Shown: positions 1 through 60,335 of the stretch, one piece after another | Layout of the letters: the number at the start of each line of letters is the position of its first letter | How positions within the stretch are numbered: position 1 is the stretch's first letter | Assembly (NCBI GenBank): GCA_944472155.2 | Contig: OX235271.1 | Coordinates: 94,997,256 to 95,061,255, forward strand | Origin: Trichobilharzia szidati | Lineage: Eukaryota; Platyhelminthes; Trematoda; Strigeidida; Schistosomatidae | Length of the DNA: 64,000 nt | Reading direction: 5' to 3' | The notes under the pieces: model-generated | Database searches by the model: none | Seen by the model: only the letters and a program-made list of their open reading frames with translations | What the model was told of the DNA's origin: nothing | Program-made: the position numbers and the translations under genes

Positions 1-90
1 TACGCCTTGCTGATGAGTGCCAACTAGCACGAAACCTAGGTCCAAGGCTTCCTGCCGATTGCCTCTAACCATCTAATACCAGGAAAATCA
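1..90. repeat. Foldback repeat, arm fragment
   Basis: This is a truncated arm of the foldback family seen complete at 25883-26146. It contains the same 'GCCAACTAGCACGAAACC' block and ends in the family terminus CCATCTAATA at about 80-89. The other arm lies outside the window or is lost. Confidence 0.7.
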
Positions 91-8479: not shown

Positions 8480-8660
8480 GGATTTTGGTCTACTAGCTCG
8501 CCTTGTAACCAGAAGGTCCTGGGTTCTAACCCTATCGGTGGATGAGTACTGATGGAGAGTCTAAAAATGGGACGAAACAGCTGTCCAGTACTCCCTGCAG
8601 GTTTTCCAATGATTCTCTAACTGATGTCAGCTCATGATGAAAATCCTCCAACCAATCAAA
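8480..8660 (+). repeat. HH-SINE copy
   Basis: Plus-strand copy with the distal part of the tRNA-like head and the hammerhead region. The core is altered to ATGGAGA. GAAA and CAGCTGTCCAGTAC are kept. Confidence 0.7.
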
Positions 8661-14744: not shown

Positions 14745-14910
14745 ATTGGCTGAATGGTCAACGAACTTTGTCTTGTAACCTGAAAGTCCCCGGTTCACTC
14801 CCTAATGAAGATGTTGATGCGTAGTGCTGAAGAGTCCCAAATTGGGACGAAATAACTGTCCAGTACTCTCTGGTTTCTAATAATCGTTTAAATCACATTA
14901 GTCCATGGAC
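14745..14910 (+). repeat. HH-SINE copy with best-preserved ribozyme
   Basis: Plus-strand copy with a tRNA-like head (A-box-like TGGCTGAATGGTCAACG near 14749; B-box-like CGGTTCACTCC near 14791), followed by the hammerhead annotated at 14821-14866 and the usual tail. Confidence 0.75.
14821..14866 (+). ncRNA. Hammerhead ribozyme (HH-SINE type)
   Basis: The order is stem I strand GTAGTG; core CTGAAGA (14827-14833), which fits CUGANGA; stem II GTCCC-AAATT-GGGAC, five perfect pairs; GAAA (14849-14852); a short weak stem III; and the cleavage triplet GTC (14858-14860), followed by CAGTAC, which pairs with the first strand except for one G-G mismatch. All required core bases are present. Stem III is minimal, as in Sm-alpha ribozymes, which are thought to act better as dimers. 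Self-cleavage is inferred from the motif only. Confidence 0.65.
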
Positions 14911-21206: not shown

Positions 21207-21297
21207 ATTTGCTTCTGTATTTGGATGCCTTGTCCTAAGCGTGTTATCCACTATTCATGAATATACAGAATCGGCTGGAAGAATTTTATTATATATG
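21207..21297 (+). CDS. KCNQ: KCNQ potassium channel exon (S1)
   Basis: Part of a voltage-gated KCNQ/Kv7 potassium channel, an integral plasma-membrane protein that assembles as a tetramer. This exon encodes most of transmembrane segment S1 and the start of the S1-S2 loop: conceptual CLVLSVLSTIHEY matches the conserved S1 C-terminus (human form CLIFSVLSTIEQY, from memory). It is 91 nt, starts with the last base of a codon and ends on a codon boundary, the length and phase I recall for exon 2 of vertebrate KCNQ genes. The acceptor is TTTTTACAG and the donor GTAAGT. The exon that should precede it (N-terminus and NFLERP-like motif) was not found upstream. The next exon is about 8.9 kb away. Confidence 0.85.
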
Positions 21298-30217: not shown

Positions 30218-30344
30218 GAACTTGTAATACTATTTTGGTTTTTCGCTGAATATTGTTTACGTCTATGGAGTGCTGGATGTAGATCCAGGTATCAGACATG
30301 GCGTGGAAGGTTGAATTTTGCAAGAAGACCTTTTTGTATAGTTG
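30218..30344 (+). CDS. KCNQ: KCNQ potassium channel exon (S2 to S3 start)
   Basis: Encodes S2 and the S2-S3 loop: conceptual ELVILFWFFAEYCLRLWSAG, then CRSRY and RGRLNFARRPFCIV. The LRLWSAGCRS-Y and RL-FARRP blocks are hallmarks of KCNQ channels; the loop contributes to calmodulin and phosphoinositide interaction in characterised members. It is 127 nt, starts in phase 0 after the upstream ATG|G junction and ends one base into a GAT codon completed by the next exon. This equals the length I recall for exon 3 in vertebrates. The acceptor is TCTTAAG and the donor GTAAGT. The conserved acidic residue of S2 is present (FFAEY). An inverted SINE pair begins about 120 bp downstream. Confidence 0.9.
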
Positions 30345-36623: not shown

Positions 36624-36799
36624 ATGTAATTGTCATAGTCGCCAGTGTAATAGTCTTGGCTGTAGACAGCGACAGAAATATGTTTGCTGCTAGTGCACTT
36701 AGAGGATTGAGATTTTTTCAGATTTTGCGTATGATACGTATGGATCGTAGAGGTGGATCATTTAAATTGCTAGCATCTGTTGTATGGGCACACAGACAA
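36624..36799 (+). CDS. KCNQ: KCNQ potassium channel exon (S3-S4-S5 linker)
   Basis: Encodes S3, the voltage sensor S4 and the S4-S5 linker: conceptual [15 protein letters not shown], then [20 protein letters not shown] and [15 protein letters not shown]4 has the KCNQ spacing of arginines with a glutamine at the third gating position (RFFQILR), a known KCNQ feature. GGSFKLL..V..HRQ matches the conserved S4-S5 linker that couples the sensor to the pore. It is 176 nt, the length I recall in vertebrates, starts with two bases completing the Asp codon begun upstream, and ends on a codon boundary before GTAAGT. The acceptor is TTTTTCATAG. Confidence 0.92.
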
Positions 36800-37701: not shown

Positions 37702-38084
37702 CCATTGTAAGCACCCCTTAACACTTTCTGAATTTGCGATACATTGAGTTAAGTTGTGATTTACAGTTGCGGCTCATAATGTACATAATAATTCACGTTA
37801 AGACACTCAGTGGTGATCACAAGTTATCAAAAATTAACAGTATATGGATATTACGAATTAACACATTATGTCTCAGGGTAAAAAATGGTGACTTCGTGGC
37901 CTGTTGATCTGATGCCTGTAAAATTCATTTTTCTGAAGAATCCTGAGCTTGCATTACTTAGTGGTTGTTGTGTTTTCCTTCAACTGAAAATGTGTTTGTC
38001 GATATAGGTTTGTTGTTTAATTAACACAGTTTATTTCATAATCATCTGCATTCACTAAAATATAATTTATTCTGACAGTAGAAT

Positions 38085-38170
38085 CCAGGATGCGCATGTC
38101 GTCTTGTTTGAAACTTGTCATCTGAATCTACTTGCATTCCCAATGAGTGGTGATGTTCCTACTCAGATCT
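38085..38170 (-). repeat. Sm-alpha hammerhead fragment, minus
   Basis: Minus strand: AATGCAAGTAGATTCAGATGA, then GCGCATCCTGGATTC. The core reads AGATGAC-like and GAAA has become GACA. It forms an inverted pair with the plus copy at 38205. Confidence 0.7.
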
Positions 38171-40144: not shown

Positions 40145-40270
40145 GAATTATTCACAACTGTATATATTGGATTTTTAGGTCTGATATTCAGTTCATTCTT
40201 AATATTTCTAGTGGAGAAAAAAGAGAATGAGAAAATTCGTACCTATGCTGATGCTTTATGGTGGGGTGTA
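40145..40270 (+). CDS. KCNQ: KCNQ potassium channel exon (S5 and turret)
   Basis: Encodes S5 and the outer turret up to the pore helix: conceptual [20 protein letters not shown], then [20 protein letters not shown] and [13 protein letters not shown] and YADALWWGV are nearly invariant in KCNQ channels. The turret is short (KKENEKIR) compared with longer vertebrate forms. It is 126 nt, phase 0 at both ends. The acceptor is TTATGCAG and the donor GTAAGT. It must be joined to one of the two pore exons (41451 or 52618), both in the same phase. Confidence 0.92.
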
Positions 40271-41450
40271 GTAAGTTTATCTATGAAGAATATCTTAATT
40301 TTTCTGTAATATATGTATATATATATACGTTTATTTATCTTAGTAAACTTAGTGATCTTATCCTACTAGCATTTAGATGGAGAGCGAGCGAATGATTGTT
40401 TCATTTGTTTATTTTCAACAATCGCTTACTAAGAGCATATTTTTTACAGAAATACTAACTACCAGCATCACAAAGGCAGTTAGTTACTGCAATTGTACAA
40501 ATCCATGCTTACTTCTTACAACGCACATTTGTTTTCATTTTGAGGTTGCTGTTGTTGTTAATGTCATCAGAATTGAATACGAACAAAGCGAAAATAGTAA
40601 TTTCCATTTTTAACTACAAATGACTTTCTCTGACCTAGTAGACAGATTTTCACCACTCCTAACTGCTAATAATATGTGTGTTTATATACATATGTTATCA
40701 GAGAAAATACATAACAAATGGATAAACATTTTGACATGCTTTTAACTAGGTTACAAACATAACCACTAAGATATGAATAGATCTTTATTGACAGAGTTAA
40801 CGAAACCTAGGATCCGTTTTGATTTTTTTTATTTATTCCGACCATCAAAGGAACTGAGGGTTTTAAATCTCTTTTCTTGTACTTCATAATGAATAGTTAT
40901 GGCATTTTTCAAGAGATAAATGCAGTACAGTTAATAATAGGACCTGAAAACGTATCATAAATTTCCTTTTCAAATGAAAGTTTCTCACGAACCGTTTTCA
41001 GTTAATGAATCACTGAAACTGGTGCGGCAATGAATATCTGCTTTGTTCTTACCATGCACCCTTATGTTGTAAAGTTCAGAAACAGATGTTTTTCTTCATT
41101 TAAGGAAGGATACATGAATGATGGTTTTACATTCTAAATTGTATTAGACGGATAGCTGTGGAATACAAGGAAATTACGCTACTCTTTATTCTGCCTTGTA
41201 GACAACTGTATACTGAAAGATCTTTTCCCATTGAGCTACTACAATGAAGGAATCTCAAATCGAATCACATATTTAGTGAAGTGGGGAATTTCAAACCGAA
41301 AACATTACTGTCCAGCGAATCAACATACGGAGAAAGCTACTTCATTTGGAATTATTTTATCTTGAGTTAAATTAATTAATTATATATGTATATTTGTATC
41401 TATATATGTACTCATTCCCTAATACTTTTCTCCCGTTAAATCCTCACTAG
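40271..41450. other. Intron before the first pore exon
   Basis: AT-rich intron of about 1.2 kb with TA-rich stretches at 40310-40330 and 41380-41410. It contains an unrecognised 78-codon ORF (40377-40613). No repeat family seen elsewhere in the window is present, which sets it apart from the neighbouring introns. Confidence 0.5.
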
Positions 41451-41561
41451 ATAACACTATGCACAGTAGGTTATGGTGATAGTGTACCACAATCTGGTTT
41501 GGGCAAAACTATTGCAGGATGTTCATGTTTGGCTATAATATCATTCTATGCATTACCACCG
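41451..41561 (+). CDS. KCNQ: KCNQ alternative pore/S6 exon A
   Basis: 111 nt, 37 codons, phase 0/0. Encodes the selectivity filter and first part of S6: [20 protein letters not shown], then IAGCSCLAIISFYALPP. It has the potassium-channel signature TVGYGD. Splice sites fit (CACTAG acceptor, GTAAGC donor). It has the same length and phase as the exon at 52618-52728, and the two peptides match at 24 of 37 positions. Differences lie after the filter: the usual PxTW tryptophan is replaced (PQSGLG), the S6 start has extra cysteines (CSC), and the hinge residue before the next exon's Gly is Pro, turning the KCNQ 'PAG' hinge into 'PPG'. The frame is open and splice sites are intact, so it looks functional, most likely as one member of a mutually exclusive pair. 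Confidence 0.9.
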
Positions 41562-42660
41562 GTAAGCTAAGTCCCTCTAATTCACTTCCTACAACAAAAA
41601 TACAAAAATTGGATAGAAAGAAAGGTTGTAGAAGAAAATTTAAAGTTTTGGAGCTATATATCAACAGTTGTCCGCAAAATTAAAGTAACATTTAAAAGTG
41701 GCGGTGAAAAATGTCGAAAATACACTCGTTTTAAACAATTTAATTTCCAGTGTGATATATTTGAAAGTTACACTATACAGAAATATCTGAAGAACATCTG
41801 TAACACCGATAGAAATTTAGATTTATATCAATAAATGGCTAATTCTTTCGCATATATTAGTGATCTAATTTAGAGATAATTACAGACCTTGTGTAAATGA
41901 CCTAATTCATGACAATAAACAGCAAAATAAAAAAAACTTCAGCTACAGACGTTAGCTTTGATTGAATAGGTCTTTCAGGTAGATGTAAATGAGGAAAATC
42001 AGAAAAGTACGGGTAATTAGAAATCCTTTTCATCCTTAACTTTTCTCTCTCTCTGAAATTTTCCTCAGTTTATTCTCCAGTTCTTTCTTTTATGCATATA
42101 TTACACTGATGAACAGAAGAAATTACTCTCAATCTTGTATCCACTGACAGCTGGTCAACTTTTATTCCTTTTCGAAAAAAAACCATCTAGGGTAAATCTT
42201 GATCTAATCATAAAGAATTCTATGGTAAACGTAGTTGATCTGTTTTTCTGACAAATGTCACATAATTTATTGTGCTTGTATAAATATTGGGATACATTTA
42301 TTACGAACACTTAAGTGACTGTCATAGCTTAAGCTAAATACTCGTTATTTTTTCAATTACTTTACAGAACATAAACATTAAGTTAAACCTTATTGGTATG
42401 GTGCTTAAGGAAGTTAATAAAGGAGAACATTTGTAGTTCAGATGGATATTTTTGGTGTTGCCTTTTTCACCTAACATTTACAGTTTAACTGCAAATGTTC
42501 AATCTTCACCGATGGCTACATATTCAGTGTATTTTATTTTAAGTTAGCGCCAGTTCTCAGTTTATTAATTGAGTTCTCTGTCTAAAATAATCATCGTATG
42601 TTAAATGAATATTAGTTATCCTACGATTTTTATGTACTCTCTTACTGTGTAGCTTAAAAG
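41562..42660. other. Intron sequence after pore exon A
   Basis: AT-rich with no repeat family I can identify. Any splicing-control sequence for the pore exon pair would be expected in the 41562-52617 intron, but I cannot identify one by eye. Confidence 0.4.
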
Positions 42661-42661
42661 A

Positions 42662-43205
42662 AATGATCATTTATTATCATTCTCTTGGGTTCAGAGTGGG
42701 ACGTAGGGTTTCAGCAGTACATGTCCATATTATTCTGTTCTCTGCAGACCATTTTAGCTGGCTCCATGATCGTCTGTAAGCTCTCACATCCTCCACACAC
42801 TATGTCCTCCATTTCACCCTTGGACACACTCTCAACTCGTCGTTTCCCATTCGCGTTCCACTGTAGAACCTGGCACGCAATGTGACTGAACGGTCTCCTA
42901 ATCGTGTGTCCAATCCATTTACTTCGACGTATTTATTGGGTAATGGCTTGTTGACAGGTTCGTTTCCATAGTTTCCTGTTGCTTATTTTTCCTGGTAACC
43001 TGATCTTCAGTATGGAGCGAAGACAACTGCTTATGAAAGATTGCAGCCTGTTGCCAATGCTTTTCGTGAAACTCCAAGTCTCTTCACCATATAGAAGAAC
43101 TGATTTGACATCGGTGTTGATTTTTACTACTTCCCTTCTCATATCTAAGACACAATGAAGGCATTTGTAATAAACTTCTACCATAGCTGTATGTTTATAG
43201 CATTG
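42662..43205 (-). mobile_element. RTE-like LINE 3' end, decayed
   Basis: Minus strand. An open frame (43211-42933) gives NTDVKSVLLYGEETWSFTKS and CLRSILKIRLPGKISNRKLW, the RTE C-terminal signature. The 3' end with ATTATCATTCTCTTGGG complement is at about 42670. The 5' end is truncated. Confidence 0.8.
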
Positions 43206-43299
43206 CCACATAAAAACAGATCGTTTCTATAATTGATTTATGTGGTTCGACTAAGTCAGCTTTATTCAAAAATGACGAAAAATAAACTGAATTTTGATG

Positions 43300-43680
43300 A
43301 TATTAGATGGTTGGAAGCGATCGGCAGGAAGCCTTGAACCTAGGTTTCGTGCTAGTTGGCACTCACCAGTCAGCAAGGCGTATCTGCAACCTTGAAGGAA
43401 CTCATGTCCCTTCTGAGATTCGAACCCGCGCCACCCAGTGCTGCAGTCAGAGACGTTACCATTGAGCTATTCGGGCTCGTGATTGACTCCCTGTTGATTG
43501 CCTCCAACCATCTAATATCATCAAATCAGTGTGCACCGTGATGGCGAGCTACTTAGACTGGTGAACACATTACAAACCTGACTGATAGAATTCAGTCTAC
43601 ACCAAATAGGGGACTAGACATATCACACTGGTTACTAATTAGTGTCCAGTCAAACTGAATTTTCCTTACTTCTTCCTCAT
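43300..43680. repeat. Foldback family, form with tRNA-like core
   Basis: The ends (about 43299-43325 and 43491-43519) are inverted (GATATTAGATGGTTGG). The centre, read on the minus strand at about 43405-43480, resembles a tRNA: TAGCTCAATGGTAACG (A-box) and GGGTTCGAATCTC (B-box). The family flank follows to 43680. This copy may represent the ancestral form from which the pure hairpin at 25883 arose. Confidence 0.75.
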
Positions 43681-44524
43681 CTTGGTCTTAAAACGACTGC
43701 AAAAATAATTAACACTTACTTCACCAGAATGTGGTCTATGTGTCTTATCAGGGGAACTAAAGGTGCTTTAAATTTATTTCACATACAATTATAATAATAA
43801 TAATAGAAGTGATTTTGATGCAGAAATAAAACATGTTGGCAAAATATCAAAAAAATGGAACACTTTCTCCACATGTTATTGGTTTTTTAAAGGAACACAT
43901 GACTGACAATCTTCTTCAAGAAAGTTTATCTTTTTCTGGGAGAAATAATTTCTTATTTCAGGATATTCTAACCCTTAAGGATTTTTAGAAGTTATTTTAT
44001 TTGGTAAAGATTTATGAACTACTACAATTATTTACGAGCAATTGTTGTAGCAAATGAAATACACAATGTTTCGTTTTATAGAGGAAATTCTGGCCACTGG
44101 CTTCATCCTAGTAGTAGGGATCTTAAGGTTGGTGTTCTCATCAGTGTATGAATGAATTTCAGAACAAGTCGATAGTTTAACAGTTAACATCACACTATCT
44201 TAAATGTATACTGTTCTGAAATAATGCCTCAATCATTACAGTATAATCAATCAGGCGGGATAATACCATGTATACGAACAGAGTGGATGTTCATAAATTT
44301 AGGGAGATTCAGTGTGGGAGGTTGTTCACTGAATTTTTGTTTATCAAAGTATTTAAGTACGATTCGCCATATTGGTAGAAAAATTTCAGGTATGAGAAAC
44401 CGTTTCATTAAATTTAGAAACGCTTAAATGGGCAAGTTCAGTAATGAGATGGATGAGGAATAGCTTAATGGGAAGAAAAATGTTGAAGACAAGCTGATAT
44501 AGTCATCAGTAATAATCCGTTTTG
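43681..44524. other. Intron sequence, no recognised feature
   Basis: AT-rich intron sequence. An unrecognised 67-codon ORF at 44224-44427 has no domain or splice context. Confidence 0.4.
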
Positions 44525-45060
44525 TTACAGGATTTCATCATCAGCTGACATCGGTTAGAGAACCATTGGAAAGCCTGAAAGTACTGGACAGCCGCTCAGT
44601 CCTAGTTTGGGACTCTTCACAGTACGCACCCACTGGGTTTCGGACCCAAGGTGAGCTCGTAGACCATTAAGCCACTGGAACCCGATCCAATGGCCCATGA
44701 ATTCCAATTTCTGCCAATTCACAATATAGCGCGACCGCTAGCCAATGTCTTCGGGGAGTATTTGTCCTCACACCCGACCTGCTGCACCCTACTGGTCACG
44801 ACTTCTCACTAGATTCTAGGTAACCTGAATAGGGCCAGTCGTTAGTGAGCATCTTATTGATATTTAATTATTGGTTTGTGGGCATTTGATTGATTGGTTA
44901 AACGATTTCATCATAAGCTGACCCTGTGGGTGCGTACTGATGGAGAGTCCCAAACTACGGCTGAACGGCTGTCCAGTACTCCCAGGTTTTCCAGTGGTTC
45001 TCTAACAGATGTCTGCTCATGATGAAATCCTGTAACCAATCAATCAAATCCCTACAAACC
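44525..45060. repeat. HH-SINE pair, minus then plus
   Basis: A minus-strand copy with tail, ribozyme region, degraded head and extension (44525-44900) is followed by the hammerhead and tail of a plus-strand copy (44930-45055, core ATGGAGA). The minus copy keeps GTCCCAAACTAGGAC but has lost part of the core. Confidence 0.7.
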
Positions 45061-45662
45061 AATATTTGAATGATAATTTGTTTTTTTGAACGTATTGACT
45101 AAATAATAATACATAACTGTTTCTTATATTAAACAAATTATTCTAGAATGTCATCGTAAATCATGTTTCAAAAGATACTAGTTTGGAAATGACTTCACGC
45201 AAACCAACTGCATCCTATTCTGTTGGTATTCTTCATGAGTTTATAACAAATTATTGTACTGTGAGAGTTTGAGATTGTAGTTACATTGCAAATTTATTCC
45301 ATATTCAAACTTATTCTTTTTGACTCATTAACATGATGTATAACACGAATTATCCTCCACTAGTCACTTTATTATATTGCCAATGTAATGTTCCTAAAAT
45401 GACGAAAAGTAACATGCTAAAACACGTATAATCTCAAGCTGATGTTACCTAAACAGAAAGATAAAACAATATATCCTACCGGTATTCACTGCAATATATT
45501 ACTATCGTCAATGTTTCCTTTCACCAGAGACAGACAGTGATCTATTAAAACCCATAGATATTGATAGAAAATAATATTTCATGACTGTGAATCTAGATGT
45601 CAGGTTGATATAATTCCCATATGACCCTGTTCTGAAGAGAAACGGATTTAAGCACGAAGTCC

Positions 45663-45870
45663 AGTTGGACGTCATAGGTCTAGTCCTTCGTTTAGTGCAT
45701 ACGGAATTCCATCAGTCATATCTGCTGTGTGGCCACAAAGCTAAGTGGTCCGCTACCACAGAAAATTCCGAATTGTTGCTAGATGGTTGGAGGCGGTTGG
45801 CAGAAAGCCTTGGACCTAGGTTTTGTATTTCCTGGCACTCATCAGCAAGGCATATCCTCACCTTCGTAAC
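45663..45870. repeat. Foldback family copy, reverse orientation
   Basis: Begins with the family flank in reverse complement (GGAATTCCATCAGTCATATC), then one arm TTGCTAGATGGTTGGAGG..GGCACTCATCAGCAAGGC. The second arm is missing. Confidence 0.65.
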
Positions 45871-48590
45871 GCTGTCGAGATATTTACAAGATCAACAATA
45901 CAGATTTTGTAAACTTTGACCTTATAGAAACCGAGCACACGGCTAACCTATATTTTAACTACATTTTTACACTTAGTCATCGAATATTATTATGATTTTC
46001 AGAAGACTGAAACACTGTGAGTAATACAAAGAAAGGTACACCATTTTCCATGAAACTGGAAATATGTATACTTAAACTGAGCGAATATCTTGCAAACACA
46101 CAGTTTCCTAGGATTCTTTACTGTTTACCTGCAATTTTTATAATTATGTTGTGAAAAATCTTTCATTTCTGACCATAAAACTCCAGCAACCAGTGGAACG
46201 GGATAATTCTCATCCTATAATTATTTTATACTCATCTTTGCCAACAATGAGTCTCCAATTACTAAAACAATTTGATATGATATCCCTGCAAGGATCATCT
46301 TTCAGATTCAGTCATGGTAACTTGATTCATGCTGTCTAACCAACTGTTTCGGACCGCTTGGATGCTTAATTGTTGTTTAGTTCTTATCTTACATGAAATT
46401 TTAATTACTGCCATAAGTAAATAGGAAAATTCAGCAAAATATTTGCTTCATTTTCTCCAGTGTAGAAGGACCACACCCACCTTTAATCAAATTTAAAGGA
46501 TGTTAAACCAATCTTGGCTTTCAAATTTAGTTTTCTAATAAAGCTGAAAGTTCGGATCATTATTATTATTAATATTGTAAAGAAAAACAGTCTTGTCATG
46601 TTTTTATAACAACTGTGAAAATTAAGTAGCACCCAAAAATAGTTGGGTATATGTACAAAGACAGTTTAACGTACCTGCAGATGGGACACAGTTGTGGTTA
46701 ACAGGATACTCCTAAGTTAATATCACAAACTTATGCACAGAATGCTCAAGTTCAAATATAACAAAAACAGTGGGAAAGGAGTCAAGTAATAAAGTCAAGA
46801 GGTGGGTAGGTTTATGATCAGTAACTGGTGGGTTGCATAATTATGCGGCTGTGGTGGTGTGATACACACAATCGGTTCCGACGGAATATTATTCTCACAC
46901 ATTCCCACAGTTCAATACTGCATTAGCAACAGTAAACTATATATGTATTTGAACATTCTATTTCATGTCGTTTAATGTACACCAAAATCACACACTCAAT
47001 GATTGGTTAAAGAATATAAACTGTATCTATATAAATAGCTGTTTGATCACTTGAAAATATACCTTGGCCTCCGTGTCTTGCCTTCTGTTGTTACACAGTG
47101 AGTTCGGGCCAAATCATAGAATTTAAAGTAAGCATAATTCCATTATGACAAAGGAGAAAGTGGTTAAAGCCGAAAACTACGTAATCAAGTTAACAGGGCA
47201 TGGAATAACTAATAACTACATTCTGAACAAACAGATCAGTTTCTAAGCGTCTGATAGCAGATGATTCAGAAAAGTTAAAGATAACTGAATCTTGCCCACC
47301 TTATGACACGTATCAACGGCATGCCTGGAAACAACATTATTGAAAGCGTGTGTTCCTTTGAACCGTAGACTTCTCGGGGCATGTTCAGAGAGTGATATGA
47401 CATTCAGATATTTACAATACTGAGGAATCCATAAAGAGTTTAATCATGGCTTACCAAAATATGCTAGCTCTTGTAGAACCAGTTGACATTTCATAAAGTG
47501 GACTTCACAGAAAGAGAGTTGTTCAACCCTGCTCTGACAAACGTGCCAGCTATTTGCCTTATGACATTTCACTTAAGCGATAATTTTAATTTCATCAAAG
47601 AGCTTCCTAAGAATTCATTCTATCTAATTATAGTCCTGTTTTGATACTCTTAGAGTTCTTATCAGAAAAAAACAATCTAAAAATAGATACTTCAACTAGA
47701 GGTAGCAGCTTTTTTTAAAAAAAAAACAAATGAAAAATAAGACAAATAAACAACCAGCTGAACAGTTATGTCTGTTTCCTAATAGTAAATATAGACTGTG
47801 TAAATGAAAAACCAATGATATTGAATTTCATTCTGAATTTATCCCTTTGGCGGCGGTTTCTTTGAAAAATTTTTCAGTCACTAATGAAATAGTGGAGTGT
47901 ATAAGTCAATTTTAATTAGATAAATACAAGCCATATGACCTTCAGAAGGATACCTAAAGAGAAGTAACTATATATTTCTGATGATCAAAGAGAATTAAAA
48001 ATTTCAAAGGTGTCTTGCTAAAAAATCACAGAGGCGAGTCGGTTTTCCGACTTCTTGTTCTAAAGATCTACGACTCTTGTTCCCTTATTGTGGCTTTTGT
48101 AGCTTTTTGTGTTTTAAACTTGAAGGAATGAGAAGCAGCTTTTGTAAAACAATTGACTGTCACCACAGATTTTACTTAGTATATCTCAGTATTCAATAAA
48201 TTAAGCTTATATGACGGATAGTATACTTTCCCCAATTAATGTGCTATATACGAGTCTTTCATTACAACTCATAGTACTGAGTGTGTAACTAACTCACTAG
48301 AGCTGTCAGCTGAATAGGCATTGAAGATAAAGGAATTTTTCACTTAAAAGAATTCCAGAATAATTTCACTGAGCTGCTACAAAAATGATTCATGACTTCT
48401 GTTGCCTCGTTTCTATTCGTAGAATAAATGAATGCGTATAGTCGTTCCTATTCTAAACAATCAAACTGTATCTTCATCATTTATGCTTGTCTTTATTGGT
48501 CATTTGTGACATTGTAAACGTAAGCCTATAACCGAGTTATAATAATAATAATGACTTTGGACACCATCACGCTTTTAAATGTGGGTAATT
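45871..48590. other. Intron sequence, no recognised feature
   Basis: Long AT-rich stretch between the two pore exons. Short ORFs such as 46151-46339 show no domain. A poly-A run lies at 47717-47727. I see no exon, no terminal repeats and no match to other repeats in the window. Confidence 0.4.
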
Positions 48591-48591
48591 C

Positions 48592-48800
48592 TATAGTTTG
48601 GTTTGTAAAGGTTAGATATGTTTTTACGAGTTGATCACTGATTGATATCAGTCAGAGAACCATTGAATGGTGTACGAGCTTGCTTTGTAACCGGAAGGTC
48701 CTGGGTTTGAATACCAGTGGGTGCGTACCGCCTATGATTCCTAAAGAGCTTGGATGAAACAGCTGTCCAGTACTCCCTGATTTCAGTGGGTAATTCTCTT
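48592..48800 (+). repeat. HH-SINE chimeric copy
   Basis: The left end (48592-48667) is a minus-orientation tail. It switches directly, at 'GAACCATTGAATGGTGTACG', into a plus-orientation head and ribozyme region. The tail-to-tail arrangement seen at 30465-31115 has been shortened to one hybrid unit. The ribozyme core is lost. Confidence 0.65.
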
Positions 48801-49039
48801 AAGTAGGATTGATTGGCAATCCGTAATTACTTTTCTTCGCGCTTCTAATTTTATTCACTTGATCTGTTCTGTTTACCTACCTTATACAAATCTAAGGATT
48901 ATTCGGTTGATGCATTGTTTATTTATAATTGTCTTATCAAAATCACAAGAAATCAAATCTCCATGTTTAACTTAATTTGCACAGTAAATAAACATCTGCT
49001 AATTACCTTTCAAAAAGCTAAAATTCATCAACGTATCAG

Positions 49040-50170
49040 GAGAAAGTGTGTCAAGTCAGCTAGTGGAACACCATGAGTGAGCTCTAATCTTAAGTGGTAA
49101 CTGTATCACTTACTCAGAAGCAGGCATATCCAGCTAGTTCAGCAGACACAGAATTGCCAGTGAACACCAACCCTCAAAAGAAGTAAGCAGTTTTGGAAGC
49201 CATAGAAGTTACTCAATGCCTGGAAAGCAGAAGAATAACATTCCATTCCATTCTGAAACACTGAAAATCGACTTCGAGACCTCAGTGGACACACTCAGTG
49301 CACTTTCGCAAAATGTCTGGAGGAAAAGAAAGAAACCTATCACCTATTAGAAGAAAGGTTACCATGTAAGATTGCCAAAGAAAGTTAACTTAAGCGTATC
49401 CAAGAAATGGCACAAGATCACGCTTCAGTAAATCGCCTCATTTTGGGAAAACGGAATGATGCATTGGATAGAAAAGGCTGAATTCAGGAAAGACAAATAG
49501 TGTACTTATCAAATCGCTACATATTCATAATTATCAAACAAGGTGTAGAATGGACTACAACACTTTACTCAGTTTTTCTTCAACTTTGTAAAGGCCTTTG
49601 ACAGCGTTTGACCTTGAAGTAATTTGGCAACTGCTTCAACGATACGGAGTGGAAACATTTATAGACCTAATTGAAAAATCAAGTGATTCACACAAGACAG
49701 TTTTGTGAAGCAGTCATTACTGGCATCATTTTCAACTGCAAACTTCCATCATCGTCTGCCTCGTCTGCATACTTGAGATCGGATCGTAAGCCAAAAAGAC
49801 TGAACGACAAACAGCTCTGGCAACTAAGCATTCAAGAACCTACTGCCTAACGAATATGCAGAAGGGAATTGAGATGAGTTGGACATGCAGTCGGTGACAT
49901 CATACATCAGGCTGCTGAATGGAACCCAGGTGGCAAGTGACAAGTTGCGTGTCTGAGGGTGATATAGAGGAGATCATGTGAAAAGGAAATAAGAGACTGT
50001 GGACAATCGTAGAGCCAGCTTATAAACACACAGCAGAAAAAAGGAGTGAAGTGGAGGATCTCTATGTTTTAATTAGAACCCAATGGATGAATAATAATAA
50101 CATCCAGCTGACAAGTGGTGGAATGAACAAAACACGAATCCTGAATTCCACTACTAACCGCCTTTATTTA
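49040..50170 (+). mobile_element. RTE LINE inside an Sm-alpha copy
   Basis: An Sm-alpha-like flank with ATATCCAGCT (about 49127-49136) leads into a decayed RTE fragment. The fragment reads DFETSVDTLSALSQNVWRKR, then FFNFVKAFDSV (RT motif A region, near 49580), and C-terminal LLPNEYAEGN-like remnants. The 3' end is ATAATAATAAC near 50090. Directly after it comes CATCCAGCTGACAAG (50101) and an Sm-alpha 3' half ending GAATTCCACTACTAACC. The Sm-alpha repeat thus appears split by the LINE, with ATCCAGCT at both edges as a possible target-site duplication. Confidence 0.65.
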
Positions 50171-50833
50171 CATAACCTTAAAGTGGTTTCTGCCTTATAT
50201 TCCTTGTCAGAGTGAATTTCTCCGCAGCAATCAATAAGAAGGAGACTAAAAGCTAACGAATAACCTAGCTGTAGTAACAGCATGTTGCTGTATGTAAACA
50301 AAATGCGTGTCTGTTGATTTCATTGCACAAAGTTGCTTGAAACGGATGAGAAATAATAAGTCTGTCATTTTGTTTGACATTATTTGGAAAACATGGAGTA
50401 CGAGCTACCTTCTCCAGACACGCACACTTTACTGTTATGTCAGGAAGAAGGGGACTTACATGAAAGACTCCACATTGATTGACTCCGTCACTTTAATTTA
50501 CTCCGTTTATTTTGGTTGTACCCGAAATGTATAATGTAACAGTTCACTTACATAAGAACTTTGTCAGAATCATTATCTCAAAACGTTAAAGGAAGAAGGA
50601 TAGCTTAACTGGTATTCAGTATTTGGTGCCTTACAAGTGATTGTAATAGAAAGCGATAGAACAAATTCCTACTATAATTCATATTAACACTTCATTTTTA
50701 CAAAGTAATGACGATTTACCGCGGTAGATTCATGGAAGTTATGACTCTTCAAGAATTACTTTGTGGGGATTTGATTTGTTCCACGTTTCATCGCGGACTG
50801 ATATCAATCAGTCCACGATGATCAGTCCACAGA

Positions 50834-51765
50834 GTGAGAGAAATTTGCTCGGATGAATGTCTTGACGAGGAGCTTAACAATATTAAACGGTTGCTAAGTG
50901 AGTTTGGTTATCCCGAAAAGTTTATTGATAAGAATATGAATCTAAAACCAAAACAGTCCAAGTTACCAACAGTGCCAAAGAAAGCCTTGTTCTTACAGAT
51001 GCAGTTCCTAGGAGACAACACAAGTGAGATACTAACACATCGCCTCAGGAATGCGGTAAAAAGAGCATTCCCTGCTGCCTAATTACACTGTGTCTTCAAA
51101 ACCACTCCTCTTCTGCGTTCGGGAATAAAGGACAGACTGCCTAATTTCGCCTCTTCCATGTGTATCTACCAATTTAACTGCTCCTGTGCAGTGAGCCAGT
51201 TACATAGACCGTACAATTAAGCGTGTTTCTCGTCGAATTTCCAAACATCACCCTGCCTGGTTAAGCAAAGGTCAAACAAAATCTATTCGCAGCGCTATTC
51301 GGGCGCATCTTGTGGAGACAGAACACAAGATTGACGTTAATCATGCTTTCAGGGTCATTTACCGCATACCTACGAATCTCAATTTTGCTTTAAGAGTTCG
51401 ACTTCTAAATATTGCTGAGGCTGTGGGGATTCATATTAATAAGCCTAATTTATGCACCCAAAAGAAGTTAGTTCAGTCATTATCATTACCTTGGCCATCC
51501 AGGTTTGAATAATCCAGAATTTTTGTGAAATTTCCCTAATTTTAGTTGATATTCTATTCGCTATTATATCTTTATTATCATTATAATTTAAGCATCTTCA
51601 ATGAAGTGCAATAGCATTGATCATACTTTGCAAATCGATATTATTTAAAAAAACGCTAATATTGTTATTAACTACTAATTTAAAATATTCTGTGTATATA
51701 AACATATATATATATAATTGTAGAGCCTGGAAGAGGAATTTATCGAAAAGAATATTCTTTGCTCG
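50834..51765 (+). mobile_element. Penelope-like element, frameshifted
   Basis: The first frame (50834-51079) encodes RT C-terminal residues: SEFGYPEKFID and HRLRNAVKRAFPAA. The GIY-YIG region (51100-51290) is broken, giving SSMCIYQFNCSC with the YIG part frameshifted. The last frame (51312-51509) gives VNHAFRVIYRIPTNLNFAL and LSLPWPSRFE. The 3' region carries a hammerhead motif at 51723-51764. No inverted second repeat was found. It lies beside HH-SINE pieces at 50765-50830. Confidence 0.8.
51723..51764 (+). ncRNA. Hammerhead-like motif at PLE 3' end
   Basis: GAGC is followed by CTGGAAGA (core with one extra G), a possible stem II GGAATTTATC, GAAA (51745-51748), the palindromic stem III AAGAATATTCTT, T, then GCTC, which pairs with GAGC. 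The architecture matches the motif at 22540-22577. The inserted G in the core makes cleavage uncertain. Confidence 0.55.
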
Positions 51766-51814
51766 ATTATTTTGTGTTTTATAGGTGTCTGAATGAATAC
51801 TTTTGCAATATTGA

Positions 51815-51965
51815 AATCAGTGAATCATTGAAAACTATGGAATGCTGGATAGCTGCTTTGCCATAGTTTGGGACTCTTTAGGAGTACGCATCCATGACCT
51901 CACAGGGAATCGAACCCAAGACCTTTAGGTCAAGCTGACTGGCAGTCACAACAACTCAAGATTTT
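51815..51965 (-). repeat. HH-SINE fragment
   Basis: Minus-strand copy with tail, decayed ribozyme (GTTTGGGACTCTTTAGGAGTAC complement) and B-box complement GGGAATCGAACCC near 51906. Confidence 0.65.
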
Positions 51966-52617
51966 ACTGTCGAATTTTTACCTTTAACGTTAACTAGATT
52001 ATTTTTAGCTAGTAGAATGATGTTGTATATCGCTAACTGACCTTCATATACAATACGATAAATCTTTAAAATTATAATCTGTACCAAAGTTGTTTCTTCC
52101 TTATAATCTTTCCGCATGAATTTTTGCATAGATAAGTAAGCAACTGGAAAACTGATTCACTGATTTAATATGGTTCTTGTAAATAATGCCGACTTTGACG
52201 GATAAACTTTCTTCGTTTTAAAAATCCTTACAAATCAAAGACTGAATGTTTACTCATAACAAGTCAAACTCATCCAACTGAACCACTTTTAATATGAATA
52301 AATGCCCAACGTATTTTTAATACTCAAGTAAACTAAACAGTCTCCGAATGGCTTTCCTTTAACTTTCAAAGAGGCCTTAAATGAATGTTGAATGAGATTA
52401 ATTGGATTAATAGTGATTATTTGTAATAATAAACCCTGGATTATATTCATATTGAAAAAAAAATATGCACAGTGTGCATATTTCAATCTCTTAAACTATA
52501 AATCATCATTTAGAAATTCTGTCTTACTAAACTAAACTAATCCTCTTCTGTTTTTTATTTTTAATCCTTGTCATCTTTATTTTTATCGTCTTCTTTCTTT
52601 CACTTTCTATCTGTCAG

Positions 52618-52728
52618 ATAACTCTTTGTACAGTCGGTTACGGGGATACAGTGCCTAAAACATGGATGGGGAAAATTATTGCAGCATTTTGTGCATTGGC
52701 TGGTATCTCCTTTTTCGCCCTACCTGCT
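52618..52728 (+). CDS. KCNQ: KCNQ alternative pore/S6 exon B
   Basis: 111 nt, 37 codons, phase 0/0. Encodes [20 protein letters not shown], then [17 protein letters not shown]. This is the more orthodox KCNQ version: TW after the filter is kept, S6 reads ISFFALPA, and with the Gly of the next exon it gives the PAG hinge. The filter reads TVGYGD where vertebrate KCNQ has TIGYGD, and exon A shares this change. The acceptor is TTTCTATCTGTCAG and the donor GTGAGT. It lies 11.06 kb after exon A and 4.16 kb before the next shared exon. Including both pore exons would keep the frame but duplicate the filter, so selection of one at a time is expected. Confidence 0.92.
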
Positions 52729-55566: not shown

Positions 55567-56262
55567 TTCACCATCGTAAACAACAACTAACACCAATCAC
55601 CATCAATGGAGGAGAATTAACAGAGGTTGCCTCCTTCACTTATCCGGGAATCACCGTTCCAGCTACAGGCCAGCGAAACGGATGAAGATGTCAAAGCCAG
55701 TCAGAAACGTGAAGGCAAGGTACGCCTTCATCAACCTGAAACCAGCTTGGAAATCTTCTGCACTCCGCTTCAACATAAAGAACAAGATTCGCATTTTCAA
55801 CACCAATGTGAAGTCAATTATTCTATACGGGTCAAAAACTTGCACTGTGTGTCACGAAAAGGATTTACAACAGGTTACAGTTTTTGAACAGTTGCCTTCA
55901 CTGTCTGCATACTGAAGACCAAATGGCCAGAAAGAATAAGCAACAAGAAACTCTGCAGTGGAACAAGCCAACTGAGCAAGAGCCGATCGCTCGACAAATA
56001 TGTAAGAGAAAATAGTGGTGAATACATTGAGGAGGCCGTCGAATGACATCGCACGACAGGCCATTGCTCGAGTGGAATCCAAATGGTGTGACTAGTGGGT
56101 TGTCAGTGAGAGGGTGACATGGAGGAGATCGTGTGAGGAAGAGATGAGAGAGTTTGGTCAATCGTGGACCCATCTGAAGAGGACGGCAGAAAACAGAACA
56201 AAGTGGAGATCTGTTGTTGAAGCCCTATGTTCCACTTGGAACTCGAGGAAATAATAATAATA
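55567..56262 (+). mobile_element. RTE-like LINE 3' end
   Basis: Plus strand. Conceptual TPITINGGELTEVASFTYPG, then in shifted frames IKNKIRIFNTNVKSIILYGS and, further on, a WNPNGV-like stretch. It ends CTATGTTCCACTTGGAACTC followed by (ATA)n at 56252-56262. The 3' tail is almost the same as the tail of SINE-1. Confidence 0.85.
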
Positions 56263-56890
56263 ATCGTAAACAACTAAATTAATTAGATACGATGATTCTT
56301 ATTTGTAGCCTGTGGTATACTTAAGGTATGAATGATTTTGAAAATCTACTGACCAAAGAAAAGAGTTTTTAACGACATCAAACGACATCATATGTTTACC
56401 TGCATTTTTATTTTGTGACATACCACAGCTGTAATTCGAGGCTAATTTTCACACAGATGTACACCATGGAATGAGCATTATAATAACTCGAAATATTCAA
56501 ACTGCACATCATGTTTATATTTCAGCAAAGTTCAGAGTTATTTACAACTGAATTTAGGGGATACACTGAGTTATGTAACACTTGGAATTTCGGTCCATTC
56601 AAGTATCTTCTGTGGAAACTAACAAAGACTGTCATTTTAATTGCACAAATTATTCTTCGCGAACTTACTCAATGGACAATCGTTTAGACAATTTTCGGTC
56701 TAATACTGTCTTGTCCACTGGTGCTGCGACAAATCTGTCAGCTGCAACATACGGGGGGAAATAAGACTGACTTGTGAAAATGCATGACGACTTAATACAT
56801 GGATAAACAAAATACTTTAGTTATGACTTAAATTTATTGTTCATTGTTAATTTTCTTATAATTAATAAAGATGTTTCAAAATATTTTCAG
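56263..56890. other. Intron sequence before S6/helix A exon
   Basis: AT-rich. A 60-codon ORF at 56582-56764 is unrecognised. The polypyrimidine/acceptor of the next exon (ATATTTTCAG) closes the segment. Confidence 0.45.
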
Positions 56891-57075
56891 GGTATACTAG
56901 GTAGTGGTTTCGCTCTCAAAGTACAGCAGCATCAGCGACAAAAACACTTAATTCGAAGAAGAGTTCCAGCGGCCACATTAATCCAATGTCTATGGAGGTG
57001 TTATGCTGCTGATCCGCATTCATCATCTGCAGCAACATGGAAAATTCATATGAGACCTTTACGGAAGCCTGTTGG
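56891..57075 (+). CDS. KCNQ: KCNQ potassium channel exon (S6 end and helix A)
   Basis: Encodes the end of S6 and cytoplasmic helix [21 protein letters not shown], then [16 protein letters not shown] and [32 protein letters not shown] is a KCNQ hallmark (S6 gate and proximal C-terminus). The IQ-like [11 protein letters not shown] segment is the calmodulin-binding helix A. It is 185 nt, phase 0 start, and ends two bases into a Gly codon completed by the next exon. The acceptor is TTTTCAG and the donor GTAAGA. It is shared by either pore exon; joined to exon A the hinge reads PPG, joined to exon B it reads PAG. Confidence 0.92.
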
Positions 57076-60101: not shown

Positions 60102-60335
60102 TTTAACAAATTCTTATTCCATGATTGAAAGGAGTGGATTTTCTCGATTCAGTCGTTTTTCAACATTAAAACGGCGTTCAGATAAGATTCATTCTGGTAC
60201 AAATACAGGCGGGAATAACGCTGCACCGACTGTATCCTCAGATGAAACAAACACTGATTTACCAAGATCTGCACCTGCGAAACCTGAAGGTTTAGACGCC
60301 ATGTATACATTTATAAGTGATGAAGAGGCTGCAAA
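60102..60335 (+). CDS. KCNQ: KCNQ potassium channel exon (C-terminal linker)
   Basis: 234 nt. The first base completes the Gly codon started at 57074, and the exon ends two bases into a codon before GTAAGT. Conceptual SYSMIERSGFSRFSRFSTLK, RRSDKIH, then a Ser/Thr/Asn-rich stretch and EGLDAMYTFISDEEAA. The position after helix A fits the variable linker towards helix B. The sequence itself is not diagnostic, but the splice phases and an acceptor of TTTCATTTCAG fit, and an open frame of this length is unusual here. Basic and serine-rich parts could be phosphorylation targets (inference). Helix B and the tetramerisation region were not found downstream, so the gene probably continues beyond the window. 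Confidence 0.75.

What the first reader, a model, noticed from the sequence alone, without database searches (positions are those of the whole stretch)
41451..52728. Mutually exclusive pore exons in a fluke KCNQ channel
Two exons 11 kb apart (41451-41561 and 52618-52728) are both exactly 111 nt, both phase 0/0, both have good splice sites, and both encode the TVGYGD filter plus the start of S6. Their peptides match at 24 of 37 positions, so the duplication is old and both copies have kept open frames. One gene could make two channels with different pores. I know of no such arrangement in vertebrate KCNQ genes, where this exon is single. This is the strongest candidate for a new system in the window.
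Basis: partly seen in the sequence, partly recalled or inferred. Interest (0 to 1): 0.9.

Follow-up and report, generated by a model that had tools for sequence, protein, structure and literature searches.

The report
Two swappable pore exons in KCNQ
A blood-fluke potassium channel gene carries two versions of the exon that builds the inner half of the pore, and its relatives keep both nearly unchanged, so one gene probably makes two channels that let through the same ion but open and close differently.

Summary
Exons A (41451-41561) and B (52618-52728) are both 111 nt, phase 0/0, AG/GT-bounded, 24/37 identical in peptide, and lie in one KCNQ gene of about 106 kb; the window is Trichobilharzia szidati. 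Exon A is constrained: annotated proteins of nine schistosomatid species, this one included, hold it (37/37 in eight, 36/37 in one), while Heterobilharzia and S. intercalatum share only 46% and 33% in two C-terminal regions of the same protein. In S. intercalatum two annotated 996-aa proteins differ only in this exon. The filter (TVGYGD) is identical, so selectivity should not change. The swap alters the outer mouth and S6: A has Ile336, Tyr340 and Pro344 (PPG instead of PAG) at gating-hinge positions where 85 other distinct KCNQ pores vary little or not at all. No listed protein outside Schistosomatidae carries A. Mutual exclusivity is inferred: every splice combination keeps the frame, and 3 of 14 gene models, including this species' own, join A and B. 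No RNA reads were seen. Mutually exclusive pore exons are a known kind (NALCN); my searches found no description of this KCNQ case. New variant of a known kind.

The parts
41451..41561 (+). Exon A: alternative pore exon (filter TVGYGD, outer mouth, first half of S6 ending in PP); 111 nt, phase 0/0
52618..52728 (+). Exon B: standard pore exon (filter TVGYGD, outer mouth, first half of S6 ending in PA); 111 nt, phase 0/0
40145..40270 (+). S5 and pore-helix exon joined to A or B; tandem donor GTAGTAAGT at its end
56891..57075 (+). Exon for the end of S6 and the first C-terminal helix ([11 protein letters not shown]...)
36624..36799 (+). S3-S4 exon
30218..30344 (+). S2 exon
21207..21297 (+). S1 exon
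60102..60335 (+). C-terminal linker exon; further exons lie past the window (to C1:95076943) and the first exon about 26 kb before it
52538..52617 (+). Pyrimidine-rich tract in front of exon B (80% C+T in 80 nt, the richest of 8 acceptors over that length), candidate strength or regulatory element
41562..52617 (+). 11,056-nt intron between A and B (rules out exclusion by too-close splice sites)

Best explanation
One KCNQ (Kv7) gene of schistosomatid flukes makes two channel subunits by putting either exon A or exon B between the S5 exon (40145-40270) and the post-S6 exon (56891-57075). Shown: both exons, frames, splice sites, strong conservation of A, and annotated A-only and B-only proteins. 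Inferred: that a normal mRNA takes exactly one. Both or neither keeps the reading frame but should not make a normal pore: the exon starts at the filter and ends in mid-S6, so a second copy would put a second filter where the lower half of S6 should be, and skipping removes the filter. Both subunits keep the K+ filter TVGYGD. They differ at S6: B has the central glycine (position 336 by KCNQ1 numbering), Phe340 and the PAG hinge; A has Ile336, Tyr340 and a PPG hinge. Most likely A changes how easily or at what voltage the gate opens, and S6-lining pharmacology, not selectivity; mixed A/B tetramers may grade this. The choice is most likely made by trans-acting splicing factors, with B as default and A as the regulated form (inference). 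The confidence below is for one-exon-or-the-other use; that A channels conduct with altered gating I put at about 0.6.
For: Exons, frames and splice sites. Exon A in 9 of the 14 schistosomatid proteins listed, 8 at 37/37 and 1 at 36/37, in Schistosoma, Heterobilharzia and Trichobilharzia. Against S. intercalatum, Heterobilharzia has 37/37 in A but 68/149 and 88/263 in two C-terminal regions; T. regenti 37/37 but 74/149 and 95/259. S. intercalatum P0009 and P0024 differ at 13 residues of 996, all in the exon. Against 85 distinct standard pores, A alone has Cys333, Ile336, Tyr340 and Pro344; 340 is Phe in 85/85 and 344 is Ala in 85/85, after the A-type pores and the Strigamia extra pore were set aside. 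PAG and position 336 as S6 gating sites: PMC7212895, PMC7584456, PMC3440756 (passages).
Against: No RNA reads examined; isoform evidence is annotation only. 3 of 14 models (S. curassoni, T. szidati itself, S. mansoni) include both exons in tandem. No frame or distance constraint enforces exclusion. AlphaFold models of the A and B isoforms (mean pLDDT 50.1 and 50.6) show nearly the same helix layout; residues 388-394 at the hinge fall below pLDDT 50 in A and not in B, but A is lower over most of the folded part, so I draw nothing from it. Gating effect and splicing factor are inference.
Confidence: 0.78

Rival explanations
1. Exon A is a cassette exon that is added to B (A+B) in some mRNAs, giving a subunit with a duplicated filter segment that is non-functional or dominant-negative and lowers KCNQ current.
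For: Three of 14 annotated models join A and B, including T. szidati P0004; A+B is open in frame.
Against: A-only models in 6 species and an exact swap pair in S. intercalatum. Conservation of all 37 residues of A, including the full K+ filter, is more than a poison segment needs. Gene predictors may chain in-frame exons (general knowledge).
Confidence: 0.12
2. Exon A is used alone, but its PPG hinge makes subunits that cannot open; A is a dominant-negative or assembly-only form that tunes channel number. (This competes with the gating part of the best explanation, not with the exon choice.)
For: KCNQ1 A344, F340 and nearby S6 residues are sites of listed disease variants (table passages in PMC7212895); A changes both, plus position 336.
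Against: The complete filter and every S6 residue of A are conserved, which a dead subunit would not need; the Shaker gate has a PXP motif at the homologous place (PMC3440756 passages).
Confidence: 0.2
3. Exon A is a relic: an old duplicate no longer spliced into functional mRNA.
For: No reads seen here; weaker acceptor pyrimidine tract than B.
Against: Open frame, kept splice sites, codon-position pattern, 36-37/37 conservation over three genera, annotated in proteins of 9 species.
Confidence: 0.03
4. Exon A is an assembly artefact or belongs to another nested gene.
For: None found.
Against: The same exon is in proteins from other species' assemblies; no other KCNQ exon of the gene is duplicated in the 164 kb searched.
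Confidence: 0.01

Closest known systems
NALCN alternative pore exons 15a/15b (and 31a/31b) of invertebrates
   Same: Tandem duplicated, mutually exclusive exons that cover the filter (exon 15 also the start of S6) of one ion channel gene; flatworms (planarian) are among the carriers; cDNA-confirmed in a snail (PMC3557258, passages seen)
   Different: NALCN exons change the filter residue (E/K) and so selectivity; here the filter is identical and the S6 hinge changes. Four-domain channel versus tetramer, so here all four pore quarters can change. Schistosoma is reported there to have lost exon 15a
Tandem duplicated exon substitutions in voltage-gated channels (Cav, Nav, Slo; PMC9741552, section 16 read)
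   Same: Homologous exons swapped one for one; enriched in ion channels; repeatedly independent
   Different: KCNQ does not occur in the main text of that paper; here the filter-to-mid-S6 exon of a one-domain K+ channel is swapped
Vertebrate KCNQ1-5
   Same: Same domain order, filter-to-mid-S6 segment (KCNQ1 308-344), PAG hinge in exon B; an exon boundary after Ala344 in human KCNQ1 is recalled, not tested
   Different: One copy of this exon (recalled); no PPG hinge among the pores seen
Strigamia maritima (centipede) KCNQ1-type protein P0013
   Same: Its gene model also holds two copies of the same segment in tandem, and the extra copy also loses Trp323 and Ala344
   Different: Different gene clade (KCNQ1-type); the extra copy shares only 21/37 with A, so probably an independent event; seen in one model only

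Membership tests
KCNQ (Kv7) channel | Six-TM core with S4 and K+ filter matching KCNQ better than other Kv | tested here: met
   Best PDB matches are KCNQ5, 2 and 1 at E 1e-83 to 1e-76; the best other Kv family is at 4e-22 (S3 to post-S6 composite with exon B)
KCNQ (Kv7) channel | C-terminal KCNQ_channel domain (Pfam PF03520) | tested here: met
   P0004 (T. szidati), P0009, P0024: 121.2, 115.7, 115.7 bits, cut-off 25
Standard KCNQ pore with PAG hinge: isoform B | PAG at the S6 hinge | tested here: met
   ALPA+G
Standard KCNQ pore with PAG hinge: isoform A | PAG at the S6 hinge | tested here: not met
   ALPP+G; membership of the gene in KCNQ rests on the rest of the protein
Mutually exclusive tandem duplicated exons | Two neighbouring homologous exons, same length and phase, own splice sites | tested here: met
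Mutually exclusive tandem duplicated exons | Both copies conserved across species | tested here: met
   A in 9 species and B in 7 species among the 14 schistosomatid proteins listed
Mutually exclusive tandem duplicated exons | Transcripts contain one or the other | tested here: inconclusive
   Annotation only: A-only 6, B-only 5, A+B 3 of 14 models; no reads available
NALCN-type selectivity switch | The two exons differ in the filter | tested here: not met
   TVGYGD in both
Exclusion by steric hindrance or by frame/NMD | Intron too short, or double inclusion breaks the frame | tested here: not met
   Intron 11,056 nt; A+B and none are open
Exclusion by competing intronic RNA structures | Conserved docking and selector sequences | not testable with these tools
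   Only one genome's introns are held; the long inverted pairs found look repeat-derived

The most novel reading that the evidence does not exclude
Schistosomatid flukes lost one of the two KCNQ genes that other flukes have and regained a second Kv7 channel inside the remaining gene by duplicating the pore exon. The copy keeps the K+ filter but swaps the S6 hinge (Gly336/PAG to Ile336/PPG), making a splice-controlled switch of gating in all four subunits. The same exon was duplicated independently in a centipede KCNQ1-type gene, again losing Ala344, so this exon is a recurrent site for evolving a second Kv7 gate.
Probability: 0.35. Interest if true: 0.7.

Novelty: new variant of a known kind. 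Interest (0 to 1): 0.55.

Why it matters
The PAG hinge of KCNQ is a central gating element and its Ala was fixed in the standard pores seen here; a natural, conserved PPG version that differs from its sister isoform only in 37 residues is a clean experiment on how S6 controls gating. For schistosome biology it would mean that a single Kv7 gene makes two channels, so drug or RNAi work on the gene must say which isoform is meant. It also adds a K+ channel to the list of pore exons duplicated in evolution.

Tried and rejected
That exon A is a KCNQ1-type pore (my first impression): rejected, A matches B at 24/37 and the vertebrate KCNQ1 pores listed at 19-22/37. That A derives from the other fluke KCNQ gene: those pores match A at 22/37, no better than others. 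That exon geometry alone is evidence: rejected, 59 chance open AG-111-GT segments. AlphaFold comparison of A and B isoforms: nearly the same layout, low confidence, not informative. Intron pairing search: long inverted copies that look repeat-derived; no conclusion. A Rfam scan of the window found five hammerhead matches and nothing else at the gathering score. Calicophoron P0027 has an unusual pore (RTWVGKIIAACCAVGG) in the clade-2 gene; it could be another alternative exon or plain divergence; unresolved. Paper searches (listings seen): KCNQ with mutually exclusive exons (21 papers, 21 listed), KCNQ with Schistosoma (23, 20 listed), KCNQ with splicing and exon 6 terms (1), Schistosoma with mutually exclusive exons (22, 15 listed), Kv7/KQT with fluke terms (1,045 with three terms, 15 listed), KCNQ with exon-duplication terms (32, 15 listed). 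No listed title or abstract start describes this case. Subscription papers and preprints are not covered, and the longer lists were seen only in part.
Full report
What the window is. A genome search placed the window at G000:C1:94997256-95061255 of a 1.11 Gb assembly. P0004's stretches over the window's exons match at 95-100%, except the S1 stretch (66%), whose alignment runs into introns. T. szidati is a schistosomatid fluke. P0004 maps exon by exon from C1:94971106 to 95076943, about 106 kb, so the window holds S1 to the start of the C-terminal linker; the first exon and the C-terminal helices lie outside it.

The two exons. Exon A (41451-41561) and exon B (52618-52728) are both 111 nt, AG/GT-bounded and phase 0/0. 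Peptides match at 24/37, DNA at 73/111, and codon positions 1/2/3 at 29/29/15 of 37. In exon A's frame a stop stands directly before the exon and the third codon after it is a stop (stop-to-stop ORF 41451-41570), so the open stretch nearly coincides with the exon. Only two K+ filter motifs occur in 164 kb on both strands under the pattern used, these two. As a control, length, splice dinucleotides and open frame alone are common: 59 such segments in the window. The homology is what counts.

Which gene. The composite channel matches solved KCNQ5, KCNQ2 and KCNQ1 at E 1e-83 to 1e-76, the best other Kv family at 4e-22. P0004, P0009 and P0024 carry the Pfam KCNQ_channel domain above cut-off. The genome search with pore plus post-S6 sequence scored 20 candidates and gave 14 matches, 3 of them in this gene. 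Of the 11 others, 5 were held as loci (L003-L005, L007, L008): none shows the KCNQ-type S6 end, three show filters of other Kv types (my reading of the motif) and two showed no filter motif in my scan; 6 were not inspected. So I see one KCNQ gene in this assembly, within the limits of that search; follow-up searches did not complete.

Relatives. Protein search 1 used the region around exon A (1421 hits, 120 listed). One search used the post-S6 region (1601 hits, 120 listed). Fourteen schistosomatid proteins appear; each stands for a cluster, so further isoforms may be hidden. A-only: Heterobilharzia americana, S. bovis, S. intercalatum, T. regenti, S. mekongi, S. rodhaini (6). B-only: S. haematobium, S. 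intercalatum, S. turkestanicum, S. japonicum, S. mansoni (5; S. turkestanicum at 36/37). A followed by B in one model: S. curassoni, T. szidati, S. mansoni (3). Exon A is 37/37 in eight of the nine proteins that hold it and 36/37 in S. rodhaini. S. intercalatum P0009 and P0024 differ at 13 of 996 positions, all inside this exon: the annotation itself records the swap. Whether reads back it I could not see.

Constraint on A. Compared with S. intercalatum, Heterobilharzia has 37/37 in A and 171/178 in S1-S5, but 68/149 in the linker and 88/263 in the tail; T. regenti has 37/37, 171/178, 74/149 and 95/259; S. mekongi 37/37, 177/178, 96/144 and 136/267. Exon A is therefore held at least as tightly as the membrane core.

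Where it came from. No protein in the listings outside Schistosomatidae carries A. The five other clade-2 fluke proteins (P0020, P0021, P0022, P0027, P0028) show only B-like pores. Absence is weak evidence because annotations often give one isoform. A tree of the channel core without the exon (31 rows, among them 4 of the 14 schistosomatid proteins) groups fluke KCNQs in two clades: one with Fasciola hepatica, Cryptocotyle, Clonorchis and Opisthorchis (100/100) and one with the schistosomatids, the second proteins of other flukes, and cestodes (99/95). Cryptocotyle lingua and Clonorchis sinensis are seen in both clades. No schistosomatid member of the first clade was listed. This suggests gene loss in schistosomatids plus exon gain in the remaining gene; it is an inference, and the dates are open.

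What changes in the channel. By alignment to KCNQ1 the exon covers residues 308-344. The filter is identical. Against 85 distinct standard pores (271 occurrences in the proteins held; segments not ending in ALPx, the two A-type pores and the Strigamia extra pore were set aside), A has four residues never seen: Cys333, Ile336, Tyr340, Pro344. Position 336 is Gly in 65 and Ala in 20, 340 is Phe in 85 of 85, 344 is Ala in 85 of 85. Counting occurrences followed by G, S or I, the hinge reads PAG 266, PAS 3, and otherwise only exon A (PPG 6, PPI 3) and the Strigamia extra exon (PSI 1); P0230, with PAA, falls outside that pattern. These pores are the best hits of three searches and not an even sample of animals. 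The spacing 333-336-340-344 would put the changes on one face of the S6 helix (inference). In the literature the PAG motif (P343-A344-G345) is the hinge where S6 bends to open, position 336 also affects gating, F340 is coupled to gating and F340W channels are constitutively active, and KCNQ1 lacks the central glycine that KCNQ2 has (PMC7212895, PMC7584456, PMC3440756; passages seen). B thus has both hinges of the KCNQ2 kind, while A has neither the glycine nor the alanine. I therefore expect a change in gating and cavity pharmacology and no change in selectivity. AlphaFold models of P0009 and P0024 (mean pLDDT 50.1 and 50.6) show nearly the same helices; the hinge segment 388-394 is below pLDDT 50 only in A, but A is lower over most of the folded part, so this does not test the idea.

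How exclusion may work. A, B, A+B and neither are all open in frame, so frame and decay do not enforce it; the 11,056-nt intron rules out steric exclusion. Over the last 80 nt B has the most pyrimidine-rich 3' splice region of the eight acceptors measured (80% C+T, reached by 0.03% of windows scanned in 21-60 kb), A a moderate one (64%); over the last 40 nt the S5 acceptor is slightly richer than B (82% against 80%), and S5 and B tie in CU-motif count. A trans-acting factor that represses or promotes one of them is the simplest model; a PTB-like repressor of B is one option and is untested. A double-exon protein would place a second filter in the middle of S6, and a skipped one has no filter, so a working subunit should need exactly one.

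Compared with what is known. Mutually exclusive exons covering filter and early S6 are documented in NALCN of invertebrates, where they switch E/K in the filter (PMC3557258, passages), and duplicated exons are enriched in voltage-gated channels (PMC9741552, section 16 read). KCNQ has no occurrence in the main text of the latter. A flatworm ion channel survey (PMC4794918, passages) has no occurrence of KCNQ, Kv7, KQT or splice, and an S. japonicum splicing study (PMC4203478, passages) none of potassium or KQT. The paper listings (the longer ones seen in part) showed nothing on a duplicated KCNQ pore exon. The kind is known; this instance, with an identical filter and a swapped S6 hinge, appears undescribed in what I could search, though the isoforms already sit in public annotation.

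Limits. No RNA reads, no introns of other flukes, annotation-level isoform evidence only, and only the best 120 hits of each protein search were seen.

Noticed in passing
Protein P0013 (Strigamia maritima), residues about 373-446: A centipede KCNQ1-type model also holds two copies of the same pore segment in tandem; the extra copy ([37 protein letters not shown]) had no close relative among the 120 listed of 309 hits of a dedicated search (best other pore 24/37).
   Followed up: partly
window 42671-43120, 49736-50100 and 55797-56263: Three related repeat-like copies; the first lies inverted to the third (472 aligned bases, 68% identical), so the pair flanks exon B on both sides. An ORF overlapping the third (55580-55912) matches DUF6451. 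Pairing in the pre-mRNA could loop out exon B and favour exon A; untested.
   Followed up: partly
window 40268-40276: Tandem donor GTAGTAAGT at the end of the S5 exon; the S. mansoni model P0005 lacks the valine before the filter exon, as if the donor 3 nt upstream were used there (its DNA not seen).
   Followed up: no
window 4-48, 1407-1452, 8546-8591, 14821-14866 (+), 38083-38127 (-): Five type I hammerhead ribozyme matches above Rfam's gathering score.
   Followed up: no
P0027 (Calicophoron daubneyi): Clade-2 KCNQ protein with a pore ([27 protein letters not shown]) unlike the other fluke clade-2 pores listed; may be another alternative exon or plain divergence.
   Followed up: no
P0006 (Centruroides sculpturatus): Model with two identical pore segments 78 residues apart; looks like a gene-model or assembly duplicate.
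   Followed up: no
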